Assembly (NCBI GenBank): GCA_025201865.1 | Contig: MU602703.1 | Location: 53,017-79,705, forward strand | Source of the DNA: Ramicandelaber brevisporus | Lineage: Eukaryota; Kickxellomycota; Ramicandelaberales; Ramicandelaberaceae | DNA: 26,689 nt | Direction of reading: 5' to 3' | Shown here: positions 7,588 through 24,797 of the stretch, one piece after another | Numbering within the stretch: position 1 is the first letter of the stretch | Layout: every line of letters starts with the position of its first letter | Made by a program: the position numbers and the translations under genes | Notes under the pieces: generated by a model | Database searches by the model: none | What the model was told of the DNA's origin: nothing | What the model saw: the letters and a program-made list of their open reading frames with translations, nothing else

Positions 7588-8244
7588 ATGAACGACAAAC
7601 ACGAGCCAAACTCTGCATCTGACACGGTCACGACCACGAACACGACCATGGATGAGCAACGCGTGTCCTCGACAGCATCAGAGGCAACACCTGCAGCAAC
7701 AACAGTTGAGATCCAGCAAGCAGCCGAGATTGAGCGAATCTTGAACACTTCACCTCTCGATCCGTATGCTGTTTTAGGATACAAGCTGCCTTACACATCG
7801 ATTGAGCTCACGAGTGTTAAAGCGCAGTATCGCAAGCTATCACGGTATGTTCATCCAGATCGATGCAAACATGAGCAGGCTCGGGATGCATTCGAGAGAT
7901 TGAAGCGAGCCGATGCTGACATTGAAGATGATGAGAAGCGCACTACTTTTCTTGAAGCTGTGGGGGAAGCTTATTTGGAAGTCATTTACCAGAAGAATCT
8001 ATCAGCTCGCAGACTACAGCATGATCAGCCTAGCACAGAAGCAACAGCAGCAGCAACGACAACGACGACAACGGCACAGGCTAGCTCCAAAGGTCCATCG
8101 CTTGCTGCATTGCGACCAGCAAATACAGCGACTAATGGTGCATCATCGCAGTCATTACAGCAACAATTGCGTAACACACAAGCACCAGAGCTGGGAACGG
8201 ACAAAGTGTTTGACAAAATGGTTCTGTTTGTGTTGCTCCGCTGA
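7588..8244 (+). pseudogene. DNAJC8/SPF31-like J-domain protein, N-terminal part, interrupted by a retrotransposon
   Basis: The frame begins at ATG 7588, which I prefer to the in-frame TTG at 7543. It has a Ser/Thr-rich N terminus, then a J domain at about residues 58-130 (DPYAVLGYKLPY..., VKAQYRKLSRYVHPDR) with the Hsp70-activating HPD at 89-91, then TFLEAVGEAYLEVIYQ and a low-complexity Ala/Thr/Gln linker. The order and the following VFDKM match human DNAJC8, a spliceosome-associated Hsp70 co-chaperone. Host-gene sequence stops at 8224, where a repeat copied at 13830 begins. That repeat adds six foreign codons (LFVLLR) and a stop, giving 218 residues in place of the expected longer protein. 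The missing C terminus is recognisable at 14137-14238, beyond the element. The truncated frame could still be translated and would keep an intact J domain. Confidence 0.85.
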
Positions 8245-8318
8245 TGGGCTTCAACGGCGGTCGATAGAATCAGTAAACAATATGTAGAATTTGAAAGATG
8301 GTTGGAAGGTTGAGTTTT
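8225..8318 (-). repeat. 3' LTR copy of the gypsy element (visible identical part)
   Basis: These bases are identical to 13831-13924, and identity extends one base further left at 8224/13830. On the element's strand the LTR ends ...CACAAACA, with the expected CA. Its start is uncertain: one candidate TGTGGG start is at about 8329, just past a purine-rich stretch (GGGCGAGAAAAA) that could alternatively be the polypurine tract. The LTR is therefore about 95-105 bases, very short for gypsy. Confidence 0.75.
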
Positions 8319-8372
8319 TCTCGCCCACAGAGTGGACGAGTTGGAGTGAAAATCAAATACGCAAATAATTTC

Positions 8373-11300
8373 TTACGTGCCGTTCGCTCGTGGCCCCAGC
8401 TCGGCTACACTGCGCGAGGCAAGGTTGACTGGGTTGCTACGCGAGCCGGAGAGCTTGTCTAACATTAGCCTTACTTTGGAGATGGGGCGCCACGATGTGA
8501 CTGCCTTCACAGCGCCTACAATCGAGCGGCGACCGTCCGCGTGATAGGTCACCATGCCTGGGAACATTTGGGGTGGCGCGGCGTCACGCCGTGGTCGGCC
8601 AGCCGGAACGGGCACATCCACGGCCACATCATCGATGATGATGCTGTCATCATCAGCAGGCTCGAGGGCAGGCGATGTGGGAAACGACGCAGCTTGTGGC
8701 GATTGAGGTGCAGACCCGATGATCGGCGACGGCTGCTGAGAGGCAACCAATGAGTCCGGCAGGAGCTCCATGACCGGTGACTCTGGCGGGGTAGCATAAG
8801 CGTCCACGTCATCGGCATCACCCAGTGGCAGTCCAGCAACCGGTGCTGGCGCGCTTGGTGCCTGGACATCAGATCCGCCACCATCAAGCTCCTCGTCATC
8901 GGGTATCAAGTCGCCTGTGGTTGGCTCCAGCTGCTGTTGGTCCGCACTTGTACCGGGTACCGGTCCAAACCAGGGTAGGATCCTGTCGACGTTGACTCTC
9001 TGCTTGAGGTGCTTGTCCGTGGTGGGATCGGCCAGTGTGTACACATCCAGCGCCGTCATCGACACCACTCGGTACGGACCCTCGAACTTGGCATCAAGCT
9101 TCGACTTGGAGGCATGGGCACTGGGCGGCTGCACGGCGATCTTGACGAGTGACCCTGGCGGGTAAACAACGACTCTGCGATGGGTATCGAGATATGCTTG
9201 ACGGCGCTGGTGTACACTCTCCATCGCCATCGCATGAAGATCCTGCACCCACGCAGCCTCCTCCCACGCCTGGCGGTGTTTTGCTGAACGGATAGTCTGC
9301 AACACCTCATCTGAGTCCATAGGCCGGCGACGACCCTCCCAGTCAAAAGGCGCGGTGCGCGCGCGTCCAAAAAAGACATCAGAGCGCGATGGGGATCCGT
9401 GCCGCGGCCGGTTGTTGAGGCGCGACAGAGCCAACGGCAGCAGTTCGGCCCAGTGGCGTGGCGGGTCGGCAGCGCGTTCTGCACGAATGCGAGTCAGCTC
9501 TTCAATCAGCGAGCGGCCGGCGCGCTCGGCCTTCCCATTTGGGGTGCTCCGACGCGGCAAACCGCGGTGGTGTTCGACGCCAATGAAACGGAGCATTGCG
9601 CCGACCAAACCGCCAGTTAGATTGCGGGCATTATCCGAGTGCACTCTGACCGGCCATGGCAAGCGCGCAAAGATGCGGGTCAATGCAGCTGCGATCTCAT
9701 CACCATCTTCACTTGCTAGCGGTTCTGCAGCAATAAAGTCCGAGGCGGCATCGGCTAACACCAAACCAGTCGTCGGCGGGCCAAGTCGGTCCTCGAACTT
9801 AAATAAATCAATGTGGTATCTTTCCGATACACTGACCTGCTTGAGAAAACGCATGCGTCCATGTGGGCGTCGCGTGTTTGGTCGGGTCAGCTGACAGTGA
9901 ACGCACTCTTTGAACACATTATCACAATCCTTCACCATTCCTTCCCAGTAGTAGCGCTTACGCAGCCAGGTTACCATGGCGTGCGAAGAACCACAGCCAG
10001 TAGCCTTGTGAGCGTGCTCGGCGAACACTCGCTGCTGCTTACCCGGCACTACCAGTAACTCGCGGCGCATATAAGGCACCGCCTCGTCAGATGGCAGAAT
10101 GCGCACGATCACTCGTTTCTCAGCGTCGAGCGTGTAGTGCATGTGTGGGAACCGCGTGGGCAGAGAAACGTCGGCTGCCTCTCGCAGTTTACACATGCGC
10201 TCGCGCATCGACGGTGACTGAGCCTGCATCGTGCGAGTGATAGTTGGCAACTGCTCAGAACCGTGAGCGATTGGGGGTGACGACGGCTGCTCCTCAGCAA
10301 CAGTGGCGGCGGCGGCGACAGTGGCTGGCAAGTCCAGCTCCAGTGGCTCGAGGGCAGGAGGCATATCTTCAATTCCCACCTCCGGCAACGGACAGCTGGC
10401 ATCGAACAATTGATCGCCTTGCAGCAGTAACTCGCCAAGTGGCGCATACATCGGGTGATCGCTACCGTGTGGAATGGGTGATTCGCGCGGTGCGACCGCG
10501 GGCAGCCGGCTCAGCGCGTCCACAAAGTTCTTCTCACCACTCACCCACTGTATCTGATCTCCTTTGATACCACGACGAGACAATTCCCGCGCAATAACGG
10601 CTAAATTTCCACGAGTGGGCGGGTGTCTCAAGATTGCACACGCGGTCTGGGAATCGGTGTAGAACGTGAGCCGCTCACTGGGGTGGCCATAGCACACGGC
10701 ATCGGCAGCCATCACAGCCCACAGGATACCCAGACTCTCCAATTCAGGAATAGTCAAGAGTGACTCGGTGCGCTTCCACGCGCGGCTCGCCATCAACAAA
10801 AACCGACGCTTCCCGTCCGCATCATCTTGGACCACTGCCATACCGACACCCGCCTTACTCGCATCCGAATAGCACTTCAGCGGCAGTGCAGGATCGTAGT
10901 TGGCTAGTGTAACGGCGTTGCGCAAGCAGTGTTTGGCGGCCAGCCACGCCTGATCGTGCACTGTCGTCCACTTGCGTGCCAGAATCGTACCCTTCTCAGT
11001 AAGTGCATACAGAGGCTTGATAGCAATGCTCAACGCCGGGACGTGTGCTCCCACATATTGGAACATACCAAGTGCCGTACGCAGCTGGGAGGCATTGGTC
11101 GGCTTCTGGAGACGGAGGAGGCTTTCTTGAAAATCAGGCGCGACAGATACACCGACTCCCGCTTGCCACGAAAAACCAAGTATTCTGATTGGGCCCCGTG
11201 CTGCAATGCACGCCTTCTCTGGTCGACATCGCACTCCCGCTGCCTGCAGTCGTTCCAGCACTGAATCTACAATCGCCAAATGTTCCTCTAGGGACCCTTT

Positions 11301-12836
11301 TGAATGAATGCACATGTCGTCAGCGAATGCTGCTGCAAGCCTCTCCAGTTCGCCAAGTATTTCGGCTACGGCGCGATTCAGGATGGACGGAGAAGCAGTC
11401 CAGCCCATTGGCAAGCTCGCGGGCTCCACTACACCAATCCCATTCACATAATATGCCATAATTGCTGCTAGTTCATCAGTGAGTTTAATGCATCTAAACG
11501 CTGTCGCTAGATCCAAAGTGCTTACCCAATCAGCGTCTTTTACTCTTTCTAACACATCCCGCACAGCCAAACCATCATATTGCACAAAGCGTGTAAGCTC
11601 GTTGACAGTCCGGAGATCAATACACACTCTCCACTTCTTCGCACGCTCACCATCCACACCAGCAGTCACCTGGTGACGCGATTCAAGCAGTACAATAATT
11701 GGATTTCTCCAAAGTGACTTGCTTGGTCTGAGCGATCCAGTTTTCAATTGCTCCATTGTATCCTCCACTAAAGCCTTGCTCGCCTCTGGACTCATCGGGT
11801 ACGACCGCTGCGCAATCGGCACCTTTGACTCGACCCGAACCTCATAAAGCGGCTGCACCTTCCAAGCTGGAGCGATTTCTCCCTTCCGGATATCGAAAAG
11901 CTCCGCATACTTTGCCACGAGTGTGTCCACCGCTTCGTTCTCTTCAGCCGTCGCGTCTACACCGACCAACTTGGCGTAGCCAGTCGGGATCGGTAGTGGA
12001 CGTTGCTCAGTGGCAGAAGTGGATGGTGCCGCAGCCACGGCATTGGAGACACTGTGAGGCTTGGCTTGACTAGCCGTCTTGATCGGCACCGTCTGCCCTG
12101 CCCACGTAACCAACCTCATGCCGCCAATGTCAACAATGGCGAAACGCGCAGCAACTTGAGCGAAAGACATCAGCGCGTCCTCTGTCAGGCCCGAGTCTGG
12201 CACTACATGGAAACGATGTGTGCGCGTCTCACCAAGTACGCTGACAGGCACATCCACCACGCCCAGGGTTCTATACACATCTTCACAACCTGGTGACGTA
12301 TACCGGCGCGTGATTCTGCCATTAATCACTCCGCCACAACGCTTGGCTACACTGCTCCGCATCAATGACAACGATGCACCCAGATCTTGCAGCATTTCCA
12401 ACTGTATGCCATTGATCTTCACATCGATTGTGCACAGTCTGGATGCTGTGAGCTTGTGTGAATGATCTGTGATGACAGCTCGTGCTGTGGCCTTGGCATC
12501 GGCTTTGGATATTATCTCCGCAGCATTCAAGCCCTCGGCGATATCCGCATCAACTGTTGCCATCGTCTGTACTCGTTCTGCTACATCGCGCTCCCGCTTG
12601 CGCAGTCGCTTTCTCTGTTTGCGCTCTTTGCTGCTACGTCTTGGTTTCGGTGACTGTTGTGATTGTGATTGCGATTGCTCTGGCTGCGATGTCGGTCCAA
12701 TCTCATGAGCAGCATCTGCCTTTGCAATTGCTCCTTCTTTTTCTTTTACGTCTGACAACTGACAATCTACATTTTTGGTTGTTAACACATGTGGATTATT
12801 AGATGGAAGGTTACAGACAGTTAGGGAAAATGCCGC
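8373..12836 (-). CDS. pol: Pol polyprotein of the gypsy element (protease, RT, RNase H, integrase)
   Basis: The frame is open from 12836 to its stop at 8373. Residue numbers here count from the GTG at 12788 (1,471 residues); the first in-frame ATG is residue 76 (12563). Protease: DLGAS at 135-139, where the family has D[T/S]G. Reverse transcriptase: about 330-600, with WRVCIDLR, LDLATAF, LPMGWTASP and catalytic FADD at 488-491. RNase H: D642 (YSDAS), E682, D712 (YTDSQ), D757 (VDALSR). Integrase: zinc-binding H925/H927, H936, C962, C965, then D994, D1052 and E1088, exactly D-D(35)-E. A GPY module (KFEGPYRV, GPY at 1237-1239) follows. The last 190 residues are Pro/Asp-rich and unassigned. RT, RNase H and integrase keep all catalytic residues I can see. 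The protein copies element RNA and inserts the cDNA. It is probably made as a Gag-Pol fusion. Confidence 0.93.
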   Translation of the reverse strand, partial: AAFSLTVCNLPSNNPHVLTTKNVDCQLSDVKEKEGAIAKADAAHEIGPTSQPEQSQSQSQQSPKPRRSSKERKQRKRLRKRERDVAERVQTMATVDADIAEGLNAAEIISKADAKATARAVITDHSHKLTASRLCTIDVKINGIQLEMLQDLGASLSLMRSSVAKRCGGVINGRITRRYTSPGCEDVYRTLGVVDVPVSVLGETRTHRFHVVPDSGLTEDALMSFAQVAARFAIVDIGGMRLVTWAGQTVPIKTASQAKPHSVSNAVAAAPSTSATEQRPLPIPTGYAKLVGVDATAEENEAVDTLVAKYAELFDIRKGEIAPAWKVQPLYEVRVESKVPIAQRSYPMSPEASKALVEDTMEQLKTGSLRPSKSLWRNPIIVLLESRHQVTAGVDGERAKKWRVCIDLRTVNELTRFVQYDGLAVRDVLERVKDADWVSTLDLATAFRCIKLTDELAAIMAYYVNGIGVVEPASLPMGWTASPSILNRAVAEILGELERLAAAFADDMCIHSKGSLEEHLAIVDSVLERLQAAGVRCRPEKACIAARGPIRILGFSWQAGVGVSVAPDFQESLLRLQKPTNASQLRTALGMFQYVGAHVPALSIAIKPLYALTEKGTILARKWTTVHDQAWLAAKHCLRNAVTLANYDPALPLKCYSDASKAGVGMAVVQDDADGKRRFLLMASRAWKRTESLLTIPELESLGILWAVMAADAVCYGHPSERLTFYTDSQTACAILRHPPTRGNLAVIARELSRRGIKGDQIQWVSGEKNFVDALSRLPAVAPRESPIPHGSDHPMYAPLGELLLQGDQLFDASCPLPEVGIEDMPPALEPLELDLPATVAAAATVAEEQPSSPPIAHGSEQLPTITRTMQAQSPSMRERMCKLREAADVSLPTRFPHMHYTLDAEKRVIVRILPSDEAVPYMRRELLVVPGKQQRVFAEHAHKATGCGSSHAMVTWLRKRYYWEGMVKDCDNVFKECVHCQLTRPNTRRPHGRMRFLKQVSVSERYHIDLFKFEDRLGPPTTGLVLADAASDFIAAEPLASEDGDEIAAALTRIFARLPWPVRVHSDNARNLTGGLVGAMLRFIGVEHHRGLPRRSTPNGKAERAGRSLIEELTRIRAERAADPPRHWAELLPLALSRLNNRPRHGSPSRSDVFFGRARTAPFDWEGRRRPMDSDEVLQTIRSAKHRQAWEEAAWVQDLHAMAMESVHQRRQAYLDTHRRVVVYPPGSLVKIAVQPPSAHASKSKLDAKFEGPYRVVSMTALDVYTLADPTTDKHLKQRVNVDRILPWFGPVPGTSADQQQLEPTTGDLIPDDEELDGGGSDVQAPSAPAPVAGLPLGDADDVDAYATPPESPVMELLPDSLVASQQPSPIIGSAPQSPQAASFPTSPALEPADDDSIIIDDVAVDVPVPAGRPRRDAAPPQMFPGMVTYHADGRRSIVGAVKAVTSWRPISKVRLMLDKLSGSRSNPVNLASRSVAELGPRANGT

Positions 12837-13783
12837 TTATTGAGAGAGTAGTTGAAGTGATTGATGGCTGTCTTGGTCGCACCTTGTTCTTCCAAGAACT
12901 GACTGAATAGCACAGCATCTTCCTTGGACTTTGCACCATTCACCAGCGCTTCAGCCAACGCAAAACAGCTAACAGTGCTATGACGGGCGCTGCCTTTGTG
13001 GAGCAAACACGTGCCAGTCTGTGTATCCTGCGCATTTGCCGCCACAGCCGTCGGCTCGTTTTCATCATCAGAGTCAATGACATTGTGCACGCGGCCGTGA
13101 CGGCTGGGATAGCGCGTCGATGCAGAGCCAGATGCGCTATTCCTGCGTACAAACACAGCATTGGCGTCCTTGTGCTTGTCGAGCGCGGCTAACTCTTCAG
13201 CAATCTTCTCAGCCGACTTGGCATTATCTCTGAAGCCGTCTTGGATAATGGGCATCACGGCACGAGCAGCATCATTATCCTCCATGTCCTCAAATGCCTT
13301 AGCTAGATGATACTTGGTCCAGCCAGCCTTCACTAGCTTCTTTGCAGCGGCCGCAAATTGTCGCACAGTGTGACCCACAATGAGTGATGCCTTACCCTGC
13401 GACGCCTGCCACAGGAACTCCGGATGCTCATACAAGCTAATGCTGCTTTTGAACGCCGTAATGACTGCCTCGTATCCTCCTTGGATGCGGTGCACCTCGT
13501 CCACCTTAGCCTTCGGGTACTTGTCCACAAGCTTCTTGTAAACAAACTCCTTGAGGTCTTCATCTTCAGTGCGCTTCGGAAAAACACTCGCAATCTCCGC
13601 TGCATAGTACTCAAAGTCGAACAATGGTTTCAACTCCGGCACCTTATCGGCCTGGGGCTTCGGCCGGTTCTGGTCTTTGATAACGTCAGCTACTTTTTCG
13701 AACCCGACGCTCATGACCGTGGCTGCAATGTTCGCGATCTGCTGCTGCAGCGCGATCTGCTTCTGCGACTCTTCGTCTGTCAT
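12821..13783 (-). CDS. gag: Gag-like protein of the gypsy element
   Basis: The product is 320 residues from ATG 13783, about 45 bases after the LTR. A helical, charged N-terminal and capsid-like region (residues 1-210) is followed by a basic, Ser-rich segment (RRNSASGSASTRYPSRHGR) and a zinc-knuckle-like motif C259-x2-H262-x5-H268-x4-C273. This is the C-H-H-C variant found in many gypsy Gag proteins in place of the CCHC knuckle. Gag would form the virus-like particle that packages the element RNA. A frame extending upstream to 14140 runs through the LTR and gap and is not used. The stop (TAA at 12821-12823) is the start of the gag-pol junction. Confidence 0.8.
   Translation of the reverse strand: MTDEESQKQIALQQQIANIAATVMSVGFEKVADVIKDQNRPKPQADKVPELKPLFDFEYYAAEIASVFPKRTEDEDLKEFVYKKLVDKYPKAKVDEVHRIQGGYEAVITAFKSSISLYEHPEFLWQASQGKASLIVGHTVRQFAAAAKKLVKAGWTKYHLAKAFEDMEDNDAARAVMPIIQDGFRDNAKSAEKIAEELAALDKHKDANAVFVRRNSASGSASTRYPSRHGRVHNVIDSDDENEPTAVAANAQDTQTGTCLLHKGSARHSTVSCFALAEALVNGAKSKEDAVLFSQFLEEQGATKTAINHFNYSLNKRHFP
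12824..12838 (-). promoter_or_regulatory. Candidate -1 ribosomal frameshift window at the gag-pol junction
   Basis: The end of gag reads AAG CGG CAT TTT CCC TAA. The pol frame is -1 relative to gag and is closed by a TAA at 12837-12839, so a shift must occur within these five codons. T TTT CCC is a near-slippery string (P-site TTT re-pairs perfectly, A-site does not), not a canonical X XXY YYZ heptamer. Confidence 0.4.
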
Positions 13784-13812
13784 TTCTACTTCAAACAGGA
13801 CTCCAGAAAACC

Positions 13813-13828
13813 CCTGGTATGCTCGCCA
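13813..13828 (-). other. Candidate primer-binding site of the gypsy element
   Basis: Two bases after the LTR's terminal CA the element reads TGGCGAGCATACCAGG. TGG pairs with the CCA end of a tRNA, and the rest would pair with an acceptor 3' strand (TATGCTC) and discriminator G, as in serine-type tRNAs. The matching tRNA is not in this window, so the tRNA identity is inference. Confidence 0.4.
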
Positions 13829-13830
13829 CC

Positions 13831-13924
13831 TGTTTGTGTTGCTCCGCTGATGGGCTTCAACGGCGGTCGATAGAATCAGTAAACAATATGTAGAATTTGA
13901 AAGATGGTTGGAAGGTTGAGTTTT
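13831..13924 (-). repeat. 5' LTR copy of the gypsy element, truncated by the gap
   Basis: It is identical to 8225-8318 over all visible bases and then runs directly into N at 13925. The contig end at this repeat is what a short-read assembly does at identical LTRs. The promoter of the element, if any, would lie here. Confidence 0.75.
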
Positions 13925-14134
13925 NNNNNNNNNNNNNNNNNNNNNNNNNNNNNNNNNNNNNNNNNNNNNNNNNNNNNNNNNNNNNNNNNNNNNNNNNNNN
14001 NNNNNNNNNNNNNNNNNNNNNNNNNNNNNNNNNNNNNNNNNNNNNNNNNNNNNNNNNNNNNNNNNNNNNNNNNNNNNNNNNNNNNNNNNNNNNNNNNNNN
14101 NNNNNNNNNNNNNNNNNNNNNNNNNNNNNNNNNN
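13925..14134. other. Assembly gap (210 N)
   Basis: The gap hides the outer end of the 5' LTR, any target-site duplication, and the central part of the split DNAJC8-like gene. By comparison with DNAJC8 about 40-50 codons are missing. Together with a few remaining LTR bases this roughly matches the gap length, if the length is a real estimate. Confidence 0.95.
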
Positions 14135-14136
14135 TG

Positions 14137-14238
14137 ACAAAACGTAAACAGGACGATAAACAATGGGAAAGCGGACAGGAAGAGCGAGTCAACAATTGGA
14201 GATCATTCCTTACAAAGCGACAGACTAAACGAAAGTAA
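14137..14238 (+). pseudogene. C-terminal end of the DNAJC8/SPF31-like gene, separated from its N-terminal part by the retrotransposon
   Basis: From the first codon after the gap the plus strand encodes TKRKQDDKQWESGQEERV followed by NNWRSFLTKR and a basic end, then TAA. This matches the C-terminal DNAJC8 block (EWQKNFEESRDGRVDSWRNFQ in human). It lies on the same strand as the J-domain half at 7588-8224, in the right order, and is followed by AATAAA at 14263-14268. Transcription from the original promoter would now have to cross about 5.7 kb of antisense-oriented element to reach it. Confidence 0.82.
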
Positions 14239-14262
14239 CATTTAGAGCATTGTTGCTTTTTG

Positions 14263-14268
14263 AATAAA
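14263..14268 (+). terminator. Polyadenylation signal AATAAA of the original DNAJC8-like gene
   Basis: It lies 24 bases after the TAA at 14236-14238, supporting this as the true 3' end of the split gene. It is followed directly by an AAT microsatellite. Confidence 0.5.
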
Positions 14269-14270
14269 AT

Positions 14271-14311
<41 letters not shown>

Positions 14312-14326
14312 TGATGATGATGATGT
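14269..14326. repeat. AAT/GAT triplet microsatellite
   Basis: There are about a dozen AAT units (14270-14309) followed by about six GAT units. It lies between the convergent 3' ends of the DNAJC8-like and SAC3-like genes. Confidence 0.85.
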
Positions 14327-14362
14327 TAATAACAATAAAAGGTGTACAGTATTTGAATCAAG

Positions 14363-15274
14363 TTAGACTCGAGGAGGACGTAGGATGACATCACCTGCGG
14401 GAGAAACTGCTTGGTAGGCTTTGTTGCCACCAGCTGCGGCTGCCAGCTCAGAAAGACTCTTTTGGATGAACTCAGATGCTTCGTGAACGTCGATCATGTC
14501 CAATCTTCTCATCAATACCTTTAGCGGACACTTCAAGTAGGCCGCTTGATGGAAGCGAAGCACCGGATGATGAACAGATTGAACAGCTCGCTCCATCATG
14601 ATCCGTAAACACTGTGCCTTAACCTTGATTTCAACCGAATCATCCTCCAAATCAGAGAGAGCCTGCTTTATCCTCCCACATGCAGTCGATCGAACAGCCC
14701 AGTCCATCAATCGCAGCGATCGGGCCAGCTGTAAAGCAAGAGTCAGCAGTGGGCCACGTTCTTCCAGTTTGAACCTCCGCATGACATTCGCAATTGGTCG
14801 AATCGAGACACGCTGGCTGCTTTTACTGCTGCTTCGGTCAGACGCTGTCCAAAACAGGACGTAGATAGCCAGAATGATGTCATTCTTACTCCCGAGAACG
14901 TCCACCAGATGGCAGATAGCCTTGTGGAGCTCGCCATGGGCATCCGCAAAGATTGCAGCCACAATCGACATCTCGTAAACCTCCTCAACAAACGCTGCAT
15001 CTGCCTTGCCAACAGAGACAATGCCTTCACGCAGCTTCCGCATATAATCGACACATCTCACTACACCGCCTTTATCAATCGGCCAGCCACCAGCTCCATG
15101 CTCTCCATTTGTGACGCATCGAAGCAGATACTGGCGAGTCCTGTTGAACAGCTGCTTCTGGGACTCTAGATCGCGCCTTGCCGAATCATTGCCGCGGCTC
15201 ACAAGTGTGATCCTTGAGAAGATCGCGGCCAGATCGTCCGCGGAGTCCACTTCCCGTTTTGTTTTACTGTTCAT
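14363..15274 (-). CDS. Probable SAC3/GANP-family (PCI-type) protein, SAC3D1-like
   Basis: The product is 303 residues from ATG 15274. It is mostly alpha-helical, with spacing that fits the SAC3/GANP domain: an N-terminal YLLRC segment, VDYMRKLREGI, FVEEVYEMSIVAAIFADAH, then HLVDVL, and IYVLFWTASDR. Next come MRRFKLEERGPLLTLALQLARSL (quoted in part) and a closing winged-helix-like stretch, LKVLMRRLDMIDVHEASEFI, which resembles the family's 'L-gfdd-eea-ef' end. Family members serve in mRNA export (TREX-2) or at centrosomes. It lacks the N-terminal MCP-type motif, so the exact subgroup is open. The assignment is by pattern only. It could be another PCI-domain protein. It is divergent from the first OFA transporter, 557 bases apart. 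Confidence 0.55.
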   Translation of the reverse strand: MNSKTKREVDSADDLAAIFSRITLVSRGNDSARRDLESQKQLFNRTRQYLLRCVTNGEHGAGGWPIDKGGVVRCVDYMRKLREGIVSVGKADAAFVEEVYEMSIVAAIFADAHGELHKAICHLVDVLGSKNDIILAIYVLFWTASDRSSSKSSQRVSIRPIANVMRRFKLEERGPLLTLALQLARSLRLMDWAVRSTACGRIKQALSDLEDDSVEIKVKAQCLRIMMERAVQSVHHPVLRFHQAAYLKCPLKVLMRRLDMIDVHEASEFIQKSLSELAAAAGGNKAYQAVSPAGDVILRPPRV

Positions 15275-15831
15275 CTTGGTTATTTTTGTGTTTGTTTGTC
15301 ACACGTTTTCTTCTGCCTCTTCGTCTTCCGCTTCTGCGTTCGCTCCAGCCGAATCGTCTAGCCTGTCGGAGTTTACCATGCCTCGATCCAATTGTTATCA
15401 AACCTCCCCAAAAATGCACGGACGAATTAACATTACATGCACGCTAGCGATTGTTGGCCAAACAACTTCCTCCCCCTCCCTCCCTCCGTTCGCTCCGTCG
15501 GCTGAGCAAACGACGGTCCTGGACTGCGTCAACTACCACTAGCAAACCAGCCTCGTCCAACTACCACCCGCACGCAACCTGTCACTTTCTTTTTTTGATA
15601 CTCTCACGCGCTCTTGTTGTTGTGTCTTCCTCTTCGTTGTCTTCGTTGTCTTCGTTGTCTTCGTCGTCCTCGTCTTCATTCTCGTTTTCGTATTCTCAAC
15701 TCACCATCATATCGCGCTTTGTTCACTGATTCAATCCACCCACAAGCATAATTCCTCACTTCCTCAGTCTCTTACTCCCTCACTCACTTCCTCCTTCACT
15801 CGCTCACACTCTCGCTTCGTCACACTGTACT
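15275..15831. promoter_or_regulatory. Divergent 5' region between the SAC3-like gene and OFA transporter 1
   Basis: No gene is seen. A TCTTCGTTG-type repeat (about 15630-15672) and a strongly CT-rich leader (about 15745-15825) directly before the transporter ATG are the main features. I see no clear TATA box. Confidence 0.4.
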
Positions 15832-17562
15832 ATGGTCGAGTTTCAAGGAGACTCGAGACCCACGCCAAACTTCTTTGTGCGTGCTCTGCTGCGCCATTAT
15901 GGCAACACCGAGCTGGTCCGCTCAGAATCCGAGGTGCTGGCCGATGAGTGGATCTTTGGCGGCTGCATGCGCTTCCGTCGCGCCTACGTCGTGCCTGTTG
16001 CCGTGCTTACTCAGTTCTGCTGTGGTTCGCTATACGCCTGGTCAGTACTCAACAAGCCCATCGATTCCCTCATCTACGGCAACGAAAAGGCCAACATGGC
16101 ATCCATCACCTTCTTCATTTCGGTCGGCTGCTTCGGTTTCTCTGCTGCACTGTTTGGTCCGTGGATCGAACGTTCGTCGCCGCGTCGTCCATGCACTGTC
16201 GGCGCACTGCTGTTTTTGATTGGTAACTTGATCTCCGCCTTGGCACTCGGTCTGAAGCAAATTTGGCTCTTGTACATCGGCTACGGTATCATTGGATCTG
16301 CTGGTCTCGGTGTCAGCTATGTCGCTACGACTTCACTTGTGCAGAAGTGGTACCCAACTGCTCGTGGTCTTGCTGCAGGTTTTGCCGTCTGTGGCTTCGG
16401 CGGTGGCTCGCTGGCATTTACCAAGGTTCGTGTCACAATTTACAACTCGACCAGCCTGTGGGCAATGATGCTCATCGAAGCGAGCATCTTTGGAGTGATC
16501 ATGCTGCTTGGTGCCCAGTTCCTGAGACCTCCTCCTCCACACTACAACACGGCCGGTCTGGCTCTCGTTGAGGACGACAAGGGTCGTGTCCAGCGTGCCT
16601 TCATGCCAGGCAAGCAGCGTCTCCAAGAAGATACTGAGCAAGGTGTCGATGGATTCAACGACGAGCGTCCCGTTGTCAAGATTACTCTTATCCAAGCCGT
16701 CACATCGCGCGATTACTGGGTCTTGTACTTTGTCTTCTTCTGCAACCAGTTCTTTGGTCTTGTCGTCATTTCTCGTCTGTCCAACATGGCCCAAGATTTG
16801 TTCTACAGTAACGCCAACTCTAGCCAATACGTTGAGGACAAGCGAGAGCAAGAGTCCAAGGGCTCCACTCTGGTCGTCCTCATCGGTCTCTTCAATGCAT
16901 TTGGCCGTCTGTTCATTGCCGCCCTCTCGGATTGGCTCGGCCGCAAGAACACCTTTGTGCTCATGCTTGGCAGTCAGATTGCTCTCATCATTGGTCTGTC
17001 GCTCGCTATCCGCAACAACATTTACTGGGCATTCTTGATGTGCTCCTGGATGGCGACGTTCATGTACGGCGGAGGCTTCGGCACAATCCCCGCCTTCCTT
17101 GCCGACATGTTTGGTCCCAGTAACGTGTCTTCTTGCCACGGTCTCATTCTCACAGCGTGGTCCATTGGCGGTGTCGTTGGTGGCTTGGCATACACTGCCA
17201 TCTTCAACAAAATGGTTGACAGCGGCCGTCATCTCAACGACCCGGCCATTTACACCGACAATTTAATCTGGATTCTTGTAATCATGTGTCTCGGCTTCTT
17301 GTTGATGCCATTCTTGCGCGCCAAACTCAGAGATCGTCTGTTCCCAGAAGCTGACAACCAGCTGTTCCGTGCCCGCGTCTTTGGCAGAATTGTCCGAGTC
17401 ACCACGAAGCCACTCAAGATTGAGATGCTCAGCAAGATCGAAGAGGATACCGAGTGGGAAGAGTTTATGATGATGGCCATTATCAGAATGAGAATGATGC
17501 GACAATCCGGCCCAAGCAATACATACGACGAGAACACCAGTTTACGAATGACTCGTGGTTAG
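15832..17562 (+). CDS. MFS transporter, oxalate/formate antiporter (OFA)-like family, paralogue 1
   Basis: The product is 576 residues with 12 predicted membrane segments: about 51-73, 89-110, 121-140, 144-165, 177-195, 208-231, then 293-315, 346-365, 372-393, 396-420, 433-458 and 476-496. A motif-A-like loop follows TM2 (GPWIERSSPRRP, 109-120), and a second lies between TM8 and TM9 (ALSDWLGRK, 364-372). The long central loop (232-290) and both tails are cytosolic. OFA-related carriers move small carboxylates across the plasma or mitochondrial membrane; the substrate here is unknown. The N-terminal LLRHYGNTELVRS block and the C-terminal EWEEFMMMAIIRMRMM block are shared with the paralogue at 20098-22563, so they are probably functional. 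No intron. Confidence 0.85.
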   Translation: MVEFQGDSRPTPNFFVRALLRHYGNTELVRSESEVLADEWIFGGCMRFRRAYVVPVAVLTQFCCGSLYAWSVLNKPIDSLIYGNEKANMASITFFISVGCFGFSAALFGPWIERSSPRRPCTVGALLFLIGNLISALALGLKQIWLLYIGYGIIGSAGLGVSYVATTSLVQKWYPTARGLAAGFAVCGFGGGSLAFTKVRVTIYNSTSLWAMMLIEASIFGVIMLLGAQFLRPPPPHYNTAGLALVEDDKGRVQRAFMPGKQRLQEDTEQGVDGFNDERPVVKITLIQAVTSRDYWVLYFVFFCNQFFGLVVISRLSNMAQDLFYSNANSSQYVEDKREQESKGSTLVVLIGLFNAFGRLFIAALSDWLGRKNTFVLMLGSQIALIIGLSLAIRNNIYWAFLMCSWMATFMYGGGFGTIPAFLADMFGPSNVSSCHGLILTAWSIGGVVGGLAYTAIFNKMVDSGRHLNDPAIYTDNLIWILVIMCLGFLLMPFLRAKLRDRLFPEADNQLFRARVFGRIVRVTTKPLKIEMLSKIEEDTEWEEFMMMAIIRMRMMRQSGPSNTYDENTSLRMTRG

Positions 17563-18518
17563 ATGAGATCTTTAGAAACGATATACACACTCTTTCACGC
17601 ACATACAGCTACATCCTTCTCAACCTCCCTCCTCCCTCCCTCACCTTCTTAAATGTTATATTTCTTCCCCTCATTTTTATTAAAACCTGTTCTGAATATC
17701 ATATTCATCATCATCATAAAAAGAAAAAGACCAAGTCAAAACCCAAATCCGAAAACTGACAACGAAGGCAACGAAAAAATAAGATAAACGCAAGATCCTG
17801 TCTATGCTAAACGAAATCATCTCCAATTCCAATAAGAGAAAGGCAAACACAGCAAAATCAAAGCCGAGAAAACGAAACTTAATCTGAGAGCAACAAGCCT
17901 CAACCTCAAACCAACAACAGCAGCAAGGCAGGCAGGCAACCAATTCAACTGACGAGTTGCGAAAAGGAAAAACAAAGACACCACAACAGAAAACAGAACA
18001 AAACAAAGGACGCGAAAAAACAAAAGCTGACAGGCCAGAGTGGAGTCTCGGATTAGATCGCCGCTCTGCTCCGCCAACCACCAACCACCAAGCTCCAAGA
18101 GCCACTACTGAACTCTCCACACTTCTTAGTTCTCACCACTCCCCACAGAAGACCACCCACGACAGCAGCAACACAAACTACGACAAAAGCAAAACACACG
18201 AATATTAAAGAGAAACAACCGAATACTACAGAGCCAAAGCGGCATACTCGCATGCGCAACATCCACATCCGCATGAAGCCCATCCCCTTCCTCCACCACC
18301 TATCAACTGGCAACGACCGCATATAAAACAGCCACAAACACCTCGACGGAACAGAAAACCAACTCGCCTGAACAGCCACCCAATTCTCGAGGAGAAACAG
18401 CCGACTCCAAAGGCCAAACAAACTGATCCAAAAGAAAACCAAGCCGAGCACCAAGAACACATCGACCACAACGGCAAGCGCAATCACCACATCCGCATGG
18501 GGTATCACTGCCTCCGCC
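17563..18518. other. Intergenic block, T-poor on the plus strand, with promoter of the ACS-type permease
   Basis: From about 17705 to 18500 the plus strand is unusually poor in T and rich in A and C; 18421-18480 has only three T. The skew produces long hydrophobic-looking but implausible antisense frames. A TATA box lies at 18322-18329. In-frame sequence before the permease ATG (18372-18518) partly resembles the family's TM2-TM3 region. Confidence 0.5.
18322..18329 (+). promoter_or_regulatory. TATA box of the ACS-type permease gene
   Basis: The site reads GCATATAAAACA. Transcription would start near 18350-18360, so the transcript would hold at most about 165 bases before ATG 18519. That leaves no room for an exon carrying the missing first membrane segments unless another promoter lies further upstream. 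Confidence 0.45.
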
Positions 18519-19787
18519 ATGGCATTTTCCCAGTCGTTCCAAGGCTTGCTTGTGCTGCGTGTTCTGCTTGGCTGCGCAGAGGCTGGTCTCGTTCCCGGAT
18601 GCATCTACTACTTGTCGTTCTGGTTCTGCAAAAACGAACAGGCGACTACGACTGCTATATTCATGGCCGCTCCAAGTGTTTCTGGGATTATTGGTGGATT
18701 CCTGGCCAGCGCTATTGGGCACATGCACGGCACGGCCGGGTGGTCAGCGTGGCGATGGCTGTTCCTGCTTGAAGGACTGCCGAGTTTTGTGTTGTGTGCT
18801 GTGGTGCTCATTTGGCTGCCAAATTATCCCGCCACTGCCAAGTTCTTGTCTGAGAAGGAGCGTGCATATGCAGCGAGTCGAATTGAACACGATAGTCATG
18901 GTCAATCCAAAGAAAGGGACAGTGAGAGTGCACCAGTCACCACAAAAGATGATGAAGAACACACAGGTGAGCAACAGTCACAGCTGCAACAACAACAACA
19001 ACAACAACAACACTCGGAAGTTGTGTTGTCAAAAGAGCGTAAGCGTGAATTATTCTGGCAGGAAGTGCGAGCGACTGTGTTTGATTGGTACAATATAGCC
19101 ATTTGCATCTGTAAGTTCTGCTATGTGTTCATTGGCTACTCGTTTACTCTGCTGCTGCCAACTCTGCTGCACAAACTGGGATTCAAGGCGACTGATGCAC
19201 AGCTTCTCACTGTTCCTCGTGCAGCTCTCGCATTGATAGCACTTTTTGTGTTGGCACGTATTAGTGACATCAAAGGCGTTCGAAGCATATACCTCATCAT
19301 TGGCGGCTCACTGAGCTCTGCTCTGTTTTTGGCGTTGACAATCATGGGTGAACATGGCCTGTGGTCAAAGTATGTGCTGCTAATCATATCGTGTGTACCT
19401 ACTGATGGACTCGGTCCCATTATTACCGCTTGGGGAGCGACAATGAACAATCGAAGCGCCACAGTCCCTCTCCCTTCATCCAATGACACCAACGGCCATT
19501 TGGATGAGAAGGACAACCAAGAACGTTTGATCCAGCTTGAAGAATATCGCGAAGCCACCAAAGTGCGACTGGCGACTTTTACGGCGATCATGTTCATGTC
19601 GTCAAACATTGGTGGCATCGTCAGTGGATTTAGCTTTCCTGAATGGGATGCACCCGGATACCGCTTCTCGCAAGGCATCAACGCATCGCTGATGATAGTG
19701 TATACAGTTCTCATTATTGCGATGCACATTTCAATCAAGCGATTCAACAGTCGCCAACCACCATCAGCTTGGACGTATCCAATCTAA
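18519..19787 (+). CDS. MFS permease, anion:cation symporter (ACS; Dal5/Tna1-like) family, N-terminally short
   Basis: From ATG 18519 (GCCATGG) the frame gives 422 residues. It begins at the end of what is TM3 in the family. GLLVLRVLLGCAEAGLVPGCIYYLSFW (quoted in part) is the family TM4 signature, followed by TM5 and TM6, a charged loop with an eight-Gln run (about 150-165), and TM7-TM12 (FCYVFIGYSFTLLLPTLL..., ARISDIKGVRS, NIGGIVSGF). Full-length members (450-550 residues) have 12 segments and start with a D-R-x-N-x-G-x-A motif, which is absent. Sequence just upstream in the same frame (KLIQKKTKPS, TTSAWGITASAM) looks like family TM2-TM3 but has no ATG back to a stop at 18369. Relatives import allantoate, nicotinate or other carboxylates with protons. 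This copy may be a truncated or decaying gene, or use an exon I cannot find. AATAAA overlaps the stop. Confidence 0.7.
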   Translation: MAFSQSFQGLLVLRVLLGCAEAGLVPGCIYYLSFWFCKNEQATTTAIFMAAPSVSGIIGGFLASAIGHMHGTAGWSAWRWLFLLEGLPSFVLCAVVLIWLPNYPATAKFLSEKERAYAASRIEHDSHGQSKERDSESAPVTTKDDEEHTGEQQSQLQQQQQQQQHSEVVLSKERKRELFWQEVRATVFDWYNIAICICKFCYVFIGYSFTLLLPTLLHKLGFKATDAQLLTVPRAALALIALFVLARISDIKGVRSIYLIIGGSLSSALFLALTIMGEHGLWSKYVLLIISCVPTDGLGPIITAWGATMNNRSATVPLPSSNDTNGHLDEKDNQERLIQLEEYREATKVRLATFTAIMFMSSNIGGIVSGFSFPEWDAPGYRFSQGINASLMIVYTVLIIAMHISIKRFNSRQPPSAWTYPI

Positions 19788-20097
19788 TAAACTTATTTCT
19801 TTTCCTCACATCTTTCACACTTTTTTTAAATCAAGCAGATACATTCGGTTAAACAAGTGCCTTCCAAAAGCTGTTTCAGCTTCGATAATGGCAGACAGAA
19901 TAATTCTAAACTATGGCCGTATCTATATTAAGTTGAACTTAGCTTTCACTTCCGTTTGTGCAATTTTAGGACATTAAGGTTATGAAATTAAAAATAATAA
20001 GATAGAAGGAGGAGATGTGGTTTTAGGGTATAAACAACAGGAATTAAAAGGGGGAGGAAGATAGAGAAGAAAGTTAGTGCAATTGTTTTTTTCACTC
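19788..20097. other. Convergent 3' intergenic region between two transporter genes
   Basis: The 310 AT-rich bases hold the 3' ends of the ACS permease and of OFA transporter 2. No gene or structured element is seen. Confidence 0.45.
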
Positions 20098-22563
20098 TTA
20101 GTTACGCTTAGAGTAAGGCACGTAGGTGTTGCGGCTGCCAGATTGATTTGACTGATACTGCTGCTGTTGCAACTGAGGAGGCTGCATGAGATGGCTTGGC
20201 CACTGTGGAGATGTCAATCCATTCAAATCATTATCGATGCGTTGACCCATCTGACCGTACTGGGCCATTCCAAGTGGATCCATATCGTGATTACCTTGGC
20301 GCTGCTGCTGCTGCTGGTGTTGCTGGTGTTGCTGGTGCTGCTGTTGATGCTGCTGAATTTGGTGTTGATAATTTGGTGCGGCCAGCGGTGGAGATGCCAT
20401 GCCAACAGTGTGATATCCAGGTGTGGTCGCAGCTCCAACTCCACCCATTCCGCCAGTACTGGAGCCATTTTGTGAGTACTTTTGCTGATTTGGGAAGCTG
20501 CCATCGTAGTTTCTGCCCATCACGCTGGAGTCAATTCCATGAGCATTGTTGGCACCAGCTTGGGCACGGCTGTTGCTCTCCGCTTCGTTCTTGACAAGAC
20601 GCAGTCGGATAATGCACATCATCAAGAACTCTTCCCACTCAGCCTCTTCCTGAGCCTTGGACAAAAACTCAACATTGAATGGCTTCGTAATACGAACCAT
20701 TCTTCCAAAGAGACGGAGACGGAGCCACTGTCCAGGGACGGCTGGGAACAGACGATCACGAAGCATGGAGCGCATGAAAATGAGAAGGATCCATCCAATG
20801 ATCATTACAGCCAGAATCCAGTACAGGTTAGCATTGTAAGCATATGGGTCATGTTCTTTGAGTGAGGACGAAGTCTGAATGTTACCAACAACGGTCGACA
20901 GAACGAGACCACCAACGACACCACCAATGGCCCAGGCAGTCAACATCAAACCGTGGCAAGCAGAGACATTGTATGGACCAAACATATCGGCAAGGAAGGC
21001 GGGAATCACACCGAATCCACCACCATAGAAGAAAGTAGCAAGCCAGGCACTGGCCAAGAATCCATAGAGCGAGTCGGTGTTGAGCGAAATCTGCAAACCA
21101 ACAGCAACGAGCAAAATCTGAGAAGTCAACATGATAATAAAAGACGTTTTACGACCAATGTGATCAGAAAGGCCAGCCATCAAAACACGTCCCAAAATGT
21201 TGAAAGCACCATCGACAACGACCCACGTGGCAGCATGAGAAGTGGCTTCCTCTGGTTCCATTGTCTTCGTCTGTGCACTGTCCAAATAGTGATATTGGGA
21301 ATGTGGATTGTTGTAGAAAACATCTCTGCAGATGTTACCAATACGCGAAATGACAGCTAAACCAAAGAACTGGTTGGCGAAGAACACGAAATACAACATC
21401 CAAAAGTCACGAGAAGTCAGTGCCTGAATCAGTGTAATCTTGATAGTTGGACGTTCTTCTTCATCTGAGTCTCCACCAAGTCCATTGCTACCATTGTTAT
21501 ATCCACCATTGCTAGCTCTGCCAACTCCAGCCTCGGCATCATCGCTCAGCTCCATTCCACCAGCATATCTCTTGTGATCAGCTTTGTAAACACGGCCCTT
21601 GGAATCTTCTTGCAAGGCAACTCCGTTCAGATTGAGACCAGGAGGAGGAGCACGGAACAATTCACCGCAAACAATCATCAAAACAAAGAACATTGCTGCC
21701 TCAATCAGGAATGTGAAGGCAATTGCACGTCCCTGTTCATCACTGCCTGGGTTAGTGGTCGATGATCCATTCGCTGTTAGCTGCTTTAACATTGACTTAT
21801 AGAAGGCAACACGAACCTTTGTGAATGCAAGTGCACCTCCGCCAAATCCACACACAGCGAAACCAGCAGCCAATCCACGCGCGTTCGGATACCACTTCTG
21901 GACAACCGAGGCAGTGGTGACATACGAGATACCAAGACCAGCTGCACCCACAACGCTATAGCCCACAAACAGTAACCATGGTTGCTGAGTAAAGAACGTA
22001 ACTGCAGTCAAGATATTGCCGAGCAAGAACAGCATTGCACCAACAGATGAGCTGCGGCGTGGAGCACTGCGCTCAATCCATGGACCCATAATGGCTGCAA
22101 CAATGCCGAATGAGCCAACTGCCAGATAGAACGCATTGATTGAATTTTGGCCTTTTGGCTGAAGCGGCCACAAATACTCCTGGAATTTATCAGAAAGACT
22201 GGACCACGAGTATAATGTACCGCAACAGAACTGAGTAATAATGGCTGCGGGAACAATGCCATGCTTTGAAAATGGCAGCAATCCTCCAAACACTCGTTCG
22301 TCTGCTTTGATGTCTTCTGGCGATCTAATGTACTCTGTATTGCCATAGTGCTTGAGAAGAAGTCGAACCAACCAGTTGGCATTCGCTTTACGATCAGCTG
22401 GTTTCGCTTCATTGTGACTGATTGGTTGCTGTGAAGGCGACAGTGCGGCAACTGCAGCTGATGGGGCAGATTGGCCATAGCTGCCATAAAGATGTGGTGG
22501 TTGCTGCTGCTGTTGTTTCTCTGCGCCGTATTGGCGGTTGTAGTTGTTGTTGTAGTCGTTCAT
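20098..22563 (-). CDS. MFS transporter, oxalate/formate antiporter (OFA)-like family, paralogue 2, with long Gln-rich tails
   Basis: The product is 821 residues from ATG 22563. An N-terminal Asn/Gln-rich tail (1-60) precedes the conserved LVRLLLKHYGNTEYIRSP block, and TM1 is at about 102-121 (GIVPAAIITQFCCGTLYSW). The 12-segment core matches paralogue 1, including GPWIERSAPRRSSSVGAMLF, WYPNARGLAAGFAVCGFGGG, AGLSDHIGRK, FYGGGFGVIPAFLADMFGP and SACHGLMLTAWAIGGVVGGL. The shared cytosolic block EWEEFLMMCIIRLRLVKNE follows. The remaining C-terminal tail of about 175 residues is rich in Gln, Gly, Asn and His, with CAG/CAA runs (about 20300-20355), and may mediate trafficking or regulation. The substrate is probably a small carboxylate, by family only. 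No intron. The inverted arrangement relative to paralogue 1 suggests duplication with inversion. Confidence 0.87.
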   Translation of the reverse strand: MNDYNNNYNRQYGAEKQQQQQPPHLYGSYGQSAPSAAVAALSPSQQPISHNEAKPADRKANANWLVRLLLKHYGNTEYIRSPEDIKADERVFGGLLPFSKHGIVPAAIITQFCCGTLYSWSSLSDKFQEYLWPLQPKGQNSINAFYLAVGSFGIVAAIMGPWIERSAPRRSSSVGAMLFLLGNILTAVTFFTQQPWLLFVGYSVVGAAGLGISYVTTASVVQKWYPNARGLAAGFAVCGFGGGALAFTKVRVAFYKSMLKQLTANGSSTTNPGSDEQGRAIAFTFLIEAAMFFVLMIVCGELFRAPPPGLNLNGVALQEDSKGRVYKADHKRYAGGMELSDDAEAGVGRASNGGYNNGSNGLGGDSDEEERPTIKITLIQALTSRDFWMLYFVFFANQFFGLAVISRIGNICRDVFYNNPHSQYHYLDSAQTKTMEPEEATSHAATWVVVDGAFNILGRVLMAGLSDHIGRKTSFIIMLTSQILLVAVGLQISLNTDSLYGFLASAWLATFFYGGGFGVIPAFLADMFGPYNVSACHGLMLTAWAIGGVVGGLVLSTVVGNIQTSSSLKEHDPYAYNANLYWILAVMIIGWILLIFMRSMLRDRLFPAVPGQWLRLRLFGRMVRITKPFNVEFLSKAQEEAEWEEFLMMCIIRLRLVKNEAESNSRAQAGANNAHGIDSSVMGRNYDGSFPNQQKYSQNGSSTGGMGGVGAATTPGYHTVGMASPPLAAPNYQHQIQQHQQQHQQHQQHQQQQQRQGNHDMDPLGMAQYGQMGQRIDNDLNGLTSPQWPSHLMQPPQLQQQQYQSNQSGSRNTYVPYSKRN
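20300..20355 (-). repeat. CAG/CAA-type Gln/His-coding repeat in OFA transporter 2
   Basis: Imperfect CAG/CAC/CAA units encode a run of mixed Gln and His in the C-terminal tail. Replication slippage could alter its length without frame loss. Confidence 0.7.
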
Positions 22564-24797
22564 TTCGAGTGAATGTGTGAATGAGTGAATGCGTGAGTGA
22601 GACGAAGAAACAACCTACAAAGGGGAAAAAATATAGAGAAAGTGATTAATCTGCTAAGGAAGAATGATCAACAGGCTGTGATTGACTGATTTGTTGACTG
22701 ATTGGAAAGAGACTCGTTTGTAAAGAACAAAGAGGAAGGTTGACTGGTAAAGCCACACACTGGAGAGGGATTATAGAAGGAAGATTGGAGAGAGAGAGAG
22801 ATGCCCGATGTAAAAAAAAACAATGGACAGTTAGAGTGTGGAGCAAGAATAAGAGTTATAAAGTCTTGCGGCGTTAATGAATGAGTGTGTTTGTGTGACT
22901 GAATAGGAGTGTGCTTGTGGCGATGATTTGTGATTGGAGAGAGTGAAGGAAGGGCGGAGGGGACGGAAAGGGAAAAGAAAAGGGAGGGAGGAGGAAAGGG
23001 TAGATTTGATAGATTTGAAGGATTGACGCGTGGAGAGAGGGGGACTGTTGGCTGATCGACTATGGATTGACGTCAAATCGGGTCCGGAGCAGAAGGAGGA
23101 AAGGGTATCAAATACAAACTCTCGCAGAGCACGGCTTCTTGGTCGGTCACTCTGTCGGCGAAACTGCTGTGCAGACTGATTCGTAATGCGCGCTATTGCT
23201 GACAGGAGTAGCAAGAGTAGTAGTAGTGGGTCGTAGCAGTAGACGATGAGAAGACTTGCAGTTGATGATGATGATGTGTGTGTGTGTTTGTGTGTGGAGA
23301 GAGTGAGTGTATCACGGCACACAGGAGTCAATATCAAATCGAAAAACAAGTGTAATGTAATATACTGTACTGTACCGTACTGTGTTAGATCCGAGGGAAA
23401 ATGGATGCACTATAGCGATAGCGTGAGTTCAAATCGATATTCTTTGCTGCCACTGCGCCACGAATAGCTCGATGAAAGAGAAGTGATGCGTGTGTGCAGT
23501 CGCCAAATGAAGTGATGAGCGGGCGGGGGGTGTGAACAACCAGCAACAAGAGGCGAGTGCAGCAAAAGAATGATGTGTATGTACAGAACTACTGATTGGA
23601 CTTGTTGCAATGCGACGCACAACACGACTGACTGCGAAATAGGAGTAGTAGTTGTAGCTGTTGTTACTGCTGTTGTGGTAGTAAGTGGGAGTCGCAAGCG
23701 AGAGAGAGCACCAAGTCAATTGAGCTAATAATGGAATGCGACAGAAACAATTGGGGTAGTGAGTTGAGCTGCACGAGATGACCAACTGCAGAGACCTAGT
23801 AAGTAACTGACGACAACAACGAAAACAACAACGACAGACCAGCCTCGCGTTCAAGAACCGATGGTAGTAGTAGTGATGGTAGTAGTGGTAGTAGCAATAG
23901 CACAGTCAGGCAGATAGTAAAAGTAGTATGAGTACGTATACGTGCGTAAGTGTGCGTAAGTGTGTGTAAGAGTGTGTGCGGAGGTCGATGGATAGCGTGG
24001 AAAAGTAACTTTTACTTTCTCTCCTTTTCTGCTTCTGTCTCAAAGCGCTCCAGCCCTCAACTTGTTCCTTTGTGGCGACACCAGGTTTACTATCCTCAGC
24101 GGAAACCAAAAGAACAAAGAAGGACAGAAGTGCTTTTGGCGATGGGCGGGTGGAAGGATGAATGCAGTGAAACGGACGTATGACGGCAGCAACAAAAAAA
24201 GAGAGACACTTGATGAACACAAAGATACAAAGCACGAAGCAAAGGAGAGTGCGATTCAAGTACGAATGCTGGCGAGGAGAGAGAGAGAGATAGACAGAGG
24301 TGAATCGAAGGCTGTTGTGTCACGATGGCGGCAGAGGTCAAACGTTGACGACGGCGGCGGCCTTCTCCAAAACACTTCACTCGGAGAAAGCACGGCCCAA
24401 CCTTCACAGAAACACACCACACACAGCACACACTCTGCACACACATACACACACTGTGGTAACCCGGTCCTCGATTAAAAAAGTCAGGCGCGACTCGGGT
24501 GACTCTTTTTGTGTGTGGGCCAACGAGAGAGAGCATAACTAAACGGGTAAAATTCGCGGTGTGAGTAAATGTCGGGGTAGCCAGCATTGGTCAGAGTGCG
24601 CGATATGAAAGAGTGGTGACAGGACGGGGGAAGACCATTGGCAGGCGACATCCAATGATTTGTTCGACGATAAAATAAAAAGAAGGAACAAAGTTCAGTT
24701 TAATCGAGAACGACGACGACAATTCCTACAAATTAAAAAACAAAAATGAGAATGATATTTGTACTATGCAAAGGATGCTACAATGTGCATAATCCGC
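22564..24797. other. Long (2.2 kb) non-coding interval upstream of OFA transporter 2
   Basis: This holds the 5' region of OFA transporter 2 (reading right to left from 22563) and the 3' region of the Hop1-like gene. Many short purine-rich and GT- or TAG-type repeats occur: GA-rich 22785-22800, GT about 23273-23296, TACTGTACTGTACC about 23362-23380, TAG/GTAG about 23861-23900, and GTGCGTAAGTGTG units about 23942-23980. Open frames are short, low in complexity and unlike known proteins. No tRNA-like structure is seen. Confidence 0.5.

What the first reader, a model, noticed from the sequence alone, without database searches (positions are those of the whole stretch)
7588..14268. A DNAJC8/SPF31-like spliceosomal co-chaperone gene is split by a gypsy retrotransposon
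The J-domain half (7588-8224) and the conserved C-terminal block (14137-14238, with AATAAA at 14263) are on the same strand and in the right order. They are separated by an intact minus-strand element whose terminal repeat starts exactly where host coding sequence stops. The left half now ends with six repeat-derived codons and a stop. DNAJC8 is broadly conserved, so loss would be notable; the insertion could be heterozygous, or a second copy may exist.
Basis: partly seen in the sequence, partly recalled or inferred. Interest (0 to 1): 0.75.

Follow-up and report, generated by a model that had tools for sequence, protein, structure and literature searches.

The report
Jumping element splits a splicing-helper gene
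In this soil fungus a recently inserted jumping element sits inside the only copy found of a gene for a splicing-machinery helper protein and cuts off its conserved end; gene-splitting insertions are common, so the interest lies mainly in which gene was hit.

Summary
The window lies on contig C37 of a 17.9-Mb fungal assembly, very probably Ramicandelaber brevisporus (neighbouring succinate-CoA ligase 100% identical to its NCBI protein). A + strand J-domain frame (7588-8224) stops exactly at an LTR. A C-terminal block with an RVxxWRxF motif, as in DNAJC8, (14137-14235) follows the element. Between them is a minus-strand Ty3/gypsy element with open gag and pol, a tRNA-Arg(ACG) primer site and 185-bp LTRs. 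Two solo LTRs elsewhere set the LTR at 8225-8409 with 4-bp target duplications. The two LTRs are identical over the 94 bases visible, so the insertion looks young. The 210-N gap fits 91 nt of LTR, 4 nt of duplication and about 115 nt of hidden coding. Neither half was found elsewhere in the assembly. Most likely a recent insertion truncates the only assembled DNAJC8/SPF31-like gene, leaving a 218-residue J-domain protein. Not shown: right-hand junction (in the gap), allele status, RNA. Ordinary mechanism, mildly notable target.

The parts
7588..8224 (+). 5' part of the host gene: 212 codons plus one base; J domain at residues 58-120
   Evidence: ORF; PF00226 E 1.2e-09, above its cut-off; single copy in the assembly as DNA
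8221..8224 (.). Expected left copy of the 4-bp target duplication, GTTC
   Evidence: Two solo LTRs elsewhere have 4-bp duplications; the right copy here is in the N gap, not seen
8225..8409 (-). 3' LTR of the element, 185 bp, TGTTTG...GCTACA on the + strand
   Evidence: Borders set by solo LTRs L006 (183 of 186 columns identical) and L007 (175 of 186)
8225..8242 (+). LTR bases that end the truncated reading frame (LFVLLR then TGA; first codon begins with host C8224)
8373..12836 (-). pol: protease (weak), reverse transcriptase, RNase H, integrase; open, 1487 codons
12821..13783 (-). gag-like frame, open, overlapping the start of the pol frame; no recognised domain
13811..13829 (-). Primer binding site, about 19 nt complementary to the 3' end of tRNA-Arg(ACG) with its added CCA (length counted by eye)
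13831..13924 (-). Visible part of the 5' LTR, 94 of 185 bp, identical to the 3' LTR
13925..14134 (.). Assembly gap, 210 N: expected rest of LTR (91), duplication (4) and hidden host coding (about 115)
   Evidence: arithmetic from the 185-bp LTR
14137..14238 (+). 3' end of the host gene: 33 codons with RVNNWRSF and TAA; AATAAA at 14263

Best explanation
A Ty3/gypsy LTR retrotransposon primed by tRNA-Arg(ACG) integrated recently, antisense, into the coding sequence of the only assembled DNAJC8/SPF31-like gene of Ramicandelaber brevisporus. It made (expected, not seen) a 4-bp duplication of GTTC and moved the last 70 or so codons about 5.8 kb downstream. The gene now encodes a truncated protein of 218 residues: an intact J domain and linker, six codons (five wholly LTR, the first a hybrid) and a stop, without the conserved C-terminal RVxxWRxF block. 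In the sequenced nucleus the protein should be unable to do whatever needs that C-terminus. Shown: left junction, LTR borders, open element frames, primer site, order and strand of the halves, single copy in the assembly. Inferred: right junction, target duplication, DNAJC8 identity (likely), loss of function, absence of another allele.
For: Exact LTR border in continuous sequence. Solo LTRs with 4-bp duplications. Open gag and pol and a primer site matching 3 tRNA-Arg(ACG) genes. LTRs identical over the 94 visible bases. Halves on the same strand and in order, and too little host DNA between LTR and right block for any but a very short separate gene. Gap size as expected. Right block aligns with human DNAJC8 202-235 (score 53; 10 of 2000 shuffles reach it) and with a recalled plant DNAJC8-like sequence (72; 0 of 5000); the left half with the plant sequence scores 124 (0 of 5000), and the plant query ranks C37 first of 12 matches. 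No second copy found.
Against: Right junction and right duplication are inside the N gap. If the gap length were exact the frame would be off by one base. Human DNAJC8 ranks C37 only 17th of 20 J-domain matches in the genome; generic J domains outscore DNAJC8 among solved structures; the linker does not align with either comparator. No fungal orthologue could be retrieved.
Confidence: 0.8

Rival explanations
1. The insertion is real but present in one allele or nuclear type only; an allele without the element keeps the gene working and the assembler kept the inserted version.
For: Very young insertion (LTRs identical over 94 visible bases); both host halves are still open. The NCBI contig with the same ligase is 82,540 bases while C37 is 79,705, so another assembly may exist.
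Against: No haplotype contig carries either flank. No intact protein turned up in the protein database, although the neighbour did; annotation may have missed it.
Confidence: 0.2
2. Scaffolding artefact: the right-hand contig was joined across the gap wrongly, so the C-terminal block belongs elsewhere.
For: The contig break falls inside a repeated LTR and the right junction was never assembled.
Against: The block is same-strand, in order and DNAJC8-like, and the gap length fits. A chance join to the right C-terminus of the same gene family is unlikely. The left junction is in continuous sequence and would truncate the gene anyway.
Confidence: 0.05
3. The element lies in an intron, or is spliced out with flanking host sequence, so a working message is still made.
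For: No RNA data; a hidden acceptor in the gap cannot be excluded.
Against: Of six GT sites in the last 137 bases of the left half none matches GTAAGT at more than 4 of 6 positions. The gap fits uninterrupted coding. An intron of about 5.8 kb would be far longer than is usual in fungi (general knowledge).
Confidence: 0.05
4. The gene is a different J-domain protein, not DNAJC8.
For: Human DNAJC8 ranks C37 only 17th of 20; generic J domains outscore DNAJC8; the linker does not align.
Against: C-terminal RVxxWRxF block; the recalled plant comparator ranks C37 first (E 9.1e-9 against 1.3e-6). The one other candidate spanning human residues 35-212 (C92, L028) lacks the block.
Confidence: 0.13

Closest known systems
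DNAJC8 / SPF31 (human chain in 7vpx)
   Same: J domain followed by a C-terminal basic block ending RVxxWRxF and a Lys/Arg-rich tail
   Different: Long Thr/Ala/Gln-rich linker that does not align; about 38 residues hidden in the gap; the gene is interrupted
Ty3/gypsy LTR retrotransposons (Ty3, solved RT-RNase H 4ol8 and polyprotein 7q5b)
   Same: TG...CA LTRs, gag then protease-RT-RNase H-integrase, tRNA primer site next to the 5' LTR, short target duplications at solo LTRs
   Different: Primer tRNA-Arg(ACG); 185-bp LTRs; pol ends inside the 3' LTR; no clear polypurine tract; gag without a recognised domain

Membership tests
DNAJC8 / SPF31 | J domain with HPD | tested here: met
   PF00226 at residues 58-120; VHPD in the translation
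DNAJC8 / SPF31 | C-terminal RVxxWRxF block with basic tail | tested here: met
   Score 53 with human (10 of 2000 shuffles reach it); 72 with the recalled plant sequence (0 of 5000). That the motif defines the family is recalled plus the human sequence
DNAJC8 / SPF31 | J domain closest to DNAJC8 among J proteins | tested here: inconclusive
   First of 12 with the recalled plant query; 17th of 20 with the human query
DNAJC8 / SPF31 | Association with U2 snRNP / SF3B1 / SF1 | not testable with these tools
   Reported for the human protein (passages seen)
Ty3/gypsy LTR retrotransposon | Protease, RT, RNase H, then integrase in pol | tested here: met
   Order by Pfam; protease and rve matches are below their cut-offs; RT and integrase pieces match solved enzymes
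Ty3/gypsy LTR retrotransposon | Paired LTRs and tRNA primer site | tested here: met
Ty3/gypsy LTR retrotransposon | Polypurine tract before the 3' LTR | tested here: not met
   By eye...CCTTGCCTCGCGCAG before TGTAGCC; no polypurine run. A lesser feature; the family call rests on pol
Ty3/gypsy LTR retrotransposon | Target-site duplication at this insertion | not testable with these tools
   Right flank is N; two solo LTRs have 4-bp duplications

The most novel reading that the evidence does not exclude
The sequenced R. brevisporus strain is a recent natural knockout of a branch-site-recognition factor: it grows without a full DNAJC8, either because the J-domain half still works or because this lineage no longer needs the factor. 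That would make it a natural test of what DNAJC8's C-terminus does.
Probability: 0.45. Interest if true: 0.4.

Novelty: new member of a known kind. Interest (0 to 1): 0.27.

Why it matters
Retrotransposon insertions that break genes are common in fungi (general knowledge). This one is of some use because the likely target is a single-copy spliceosomal co-chaperone whose role is poorly understood, and because the event looks young, so strains with and without it may exist and be comparable.

Tried and rejected
Second copy of DNAJC8. C92 (L028) matched human residues 35-212 at E 0.011, but it is another J protein: by eye like DNAJC17/Cwc23; Pfam found DnaJ and one sub-threshold match; no RVxxWR block in the locus. 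C50 (L035) matched the human C-terminus at E 0.06, but it is a 48-residue frame without RVxxWR: chance. C48 and C377 are weak J-domain or low-complexity matches. The codon pattern for RVxxWRxF has 25 matches genome-wide against 15 for the reversed control. Read by eye, 16 of the 25 give Ser at an Arg site, 2 hold a stop, and 7 read RVxxWRxF. Of these 7, one is the window's; the other 6 lie in frames of 13 to 96 codons without its surroundings. Introns could hide a real one, so this is not exhaustive.

Protein database: the left half (E up to 0.001) and the joined halves (E up to 10) gave no hit among 1212 and 1100 candidates, so no fungal orthologues could be aligned. The neighbour search worked and named the organism.

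Human DNAJC8 right block against solved structures: no match up to E 10.

Papers: searches on DNAJC8 with spliceosome, U2 snRNP, SF3B1, fungi and fission yeast, and on spf31, listed no title about this gene in Kickxellomycotina; one search listed 20 of 36 papers. A Ty3/tRNA-Arg search was seen as a listing only. Passages by term were read of PMC11482624 (one), PMC4666396 (one) and PMC5285503 (two); the rest are listings.

Full report
Where it is. The window is C37:53017-79705 of a 17,887,837-base, 510-contig assembly. The gene just upstream of the finding, a succinate-CoA ligase beta subunit, is 100% identical over 386 residues to an NCBI protein of Ramicandelaber brevisporus; the next best of the 120 listed hits are 70%. 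The fungus belongs to Kickxellomycotina. The finding lies between that ligase gene (+, ending 7494) and a minus-strand frame at 14363-15298.

The left half. ATG 7588 opens a frame of 212 host codons with a J domain at residues 58-120 (PF00226, E 1.2e-09). It meets an LTR at 8225 and goes on for six codons, LFVLLR, before TGA; the first of the six takes its first base from host C8224.

The element. Minus-strand pol (8373-12836) and gag (ending 12821) are both open. Pol carries, in order, sub-threshold aspartyl protease matches, RVT_1, RNase H, an integrase zinc-binding domain and a sub-threshold rve match. The RT-RNase H piece matches Ty3 RT (4ol8, E 3.2e-20), with chains named Pr125Pol slightly better (8.3e-21). 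The integrase piece matches retroviral integrases. The LTR query has five matches in the genome: the two here, full-length ones on C174 and C44, and a partial one on C75. The C174 and C44 copies are solo LTRs, flanked directly by CATC/CATC and GGAG/GGAG. This sets the LTR at 185 bp (8225-8409) and the duplication at 4 bp. The pol search found this copy and three distant elements (24-25% identity) on other contigs (counts are lower bounds). Next to the 5' LTR is a stretch complementary to a tRNA 3' end. Its 14-base core occurs four times in the genome (reversed control: none): once in the element and three times in genes that ARAGORN calls tRNA-Arg(ACG). Counting by eye with the added CCA, 19 nt match. 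A polypurine tract is not evident.

Age. The two LTRs are identical over the 94 visible bases. By the rule of three the true divergence is probably below about 3%; no better dating is possible because the rest of the right LTR is in the gap.

The right half and the gap. N runs from 13925 to 14134. A 185-bp LTR starting at 13831 would end at 14015. That leaves 119 nt, or 115 after a 4-bp duplication, for hidden host sequence before 14135. Human DNAJC8 has a stretch of the same order there (about 34 residues by eye, on a non-significant alignment). If the gap length were exact, the frame would be off by one base; gap lengths are usually estimates. After the gap come 33 codons ending ERVNNWRSFLTKRQTKRK and TAA. 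Because so little host DNA lies between the LTR and this block, its gene must begin on the other side of the element unless it is a very short gene.

Is it DNAJC8? For: the C-terminal block aligns with human DNAJC8 202-235 (score 53; 10 of 2000 shuffles reach it), and the left half with the human J domain (85; 0 of 2000), which any J protein might do. Against: human DNAJC8 ranks C37 17th of 20 matches, generic J domains outscore DNAJC8 among solved structures, the right block alone finds no solved chain, and the linker aligns with neither comparator (437 of 2000 and 2723 of 5000 shuffles reach its scores). I judge DNAJC8 identity about 0.85 likely. The plant comparator is a lead, not a verified sequence.

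Is there another copy? Left-half DNA: one match, itself. Left-half protein: itself and two weak matches. Right-half protein: one match, itself. Human C-terminus as query: one chance match elsewhere, and it missed the window's own block, so this query is not sensitive. Codon pattern for RVxxWRxF: 25 matches against 15 in the reversed control; 7 of the 25 truly read RVxxWRxF, and the 6 others lie in short frames without its surroundings. In the protein database the neighbouring ligase is present at 100%, while neither the left half nor the joined gene has a match. So no annotated intact R. brevisporus copy of roughly 130-370 residues seems to be deposited there. This is an argument from absence.

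What it does. Most likely the insertion leaves a truncated J-domain protein. [quoted passage not shown] Which part of DNAJC8 makes these contacts I did not see. By recall, budding yeast lacks the gene and fission yeast has spf31, so loss in a fungus is tolerable in principle.

Verdict. The mechanism is ordinary; the target and the youth of the event give it modest interest.

Noticed in passing
12821-12839: The pol frame opens just before the gag stop, one base back relative to gag (by ORF coordinates), which suggests a -1 frameshift; no classical slippery heptamer in the right phase was seen by eye.
   Followed up: no
8395-8460: No polypurine tract before the 3' LTR; pol runs into the LTR. How second-strand synthesis is primed is unclear.
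   Followed up: partly
15730-22614: Two major-facilitator transporter frames (15730-17562 + and 20098-22614 -; Pfam MFS_1) face each other as 71-75% inverted repeats, with a third transporter-like frame at 18372-19787 between them (not scanned).
   Followed up: no
P0001 record versus C37: NCBI's R. brevisporus contig holding the identical ligase is 82,540 bases, while C37 is 79,705 and ends where the window ends; possibly two assemblies, whose comparison might show an allele without the element.
   Followed up: no
14363-15298: Open minus-strand frame of 311 codons next to the split gene, with no Pfam or NCBIfam match.
   Followed up: partly
14263-14338: AAT/GAT microsatellite directly after the split gene's stop.
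   Followed up: no
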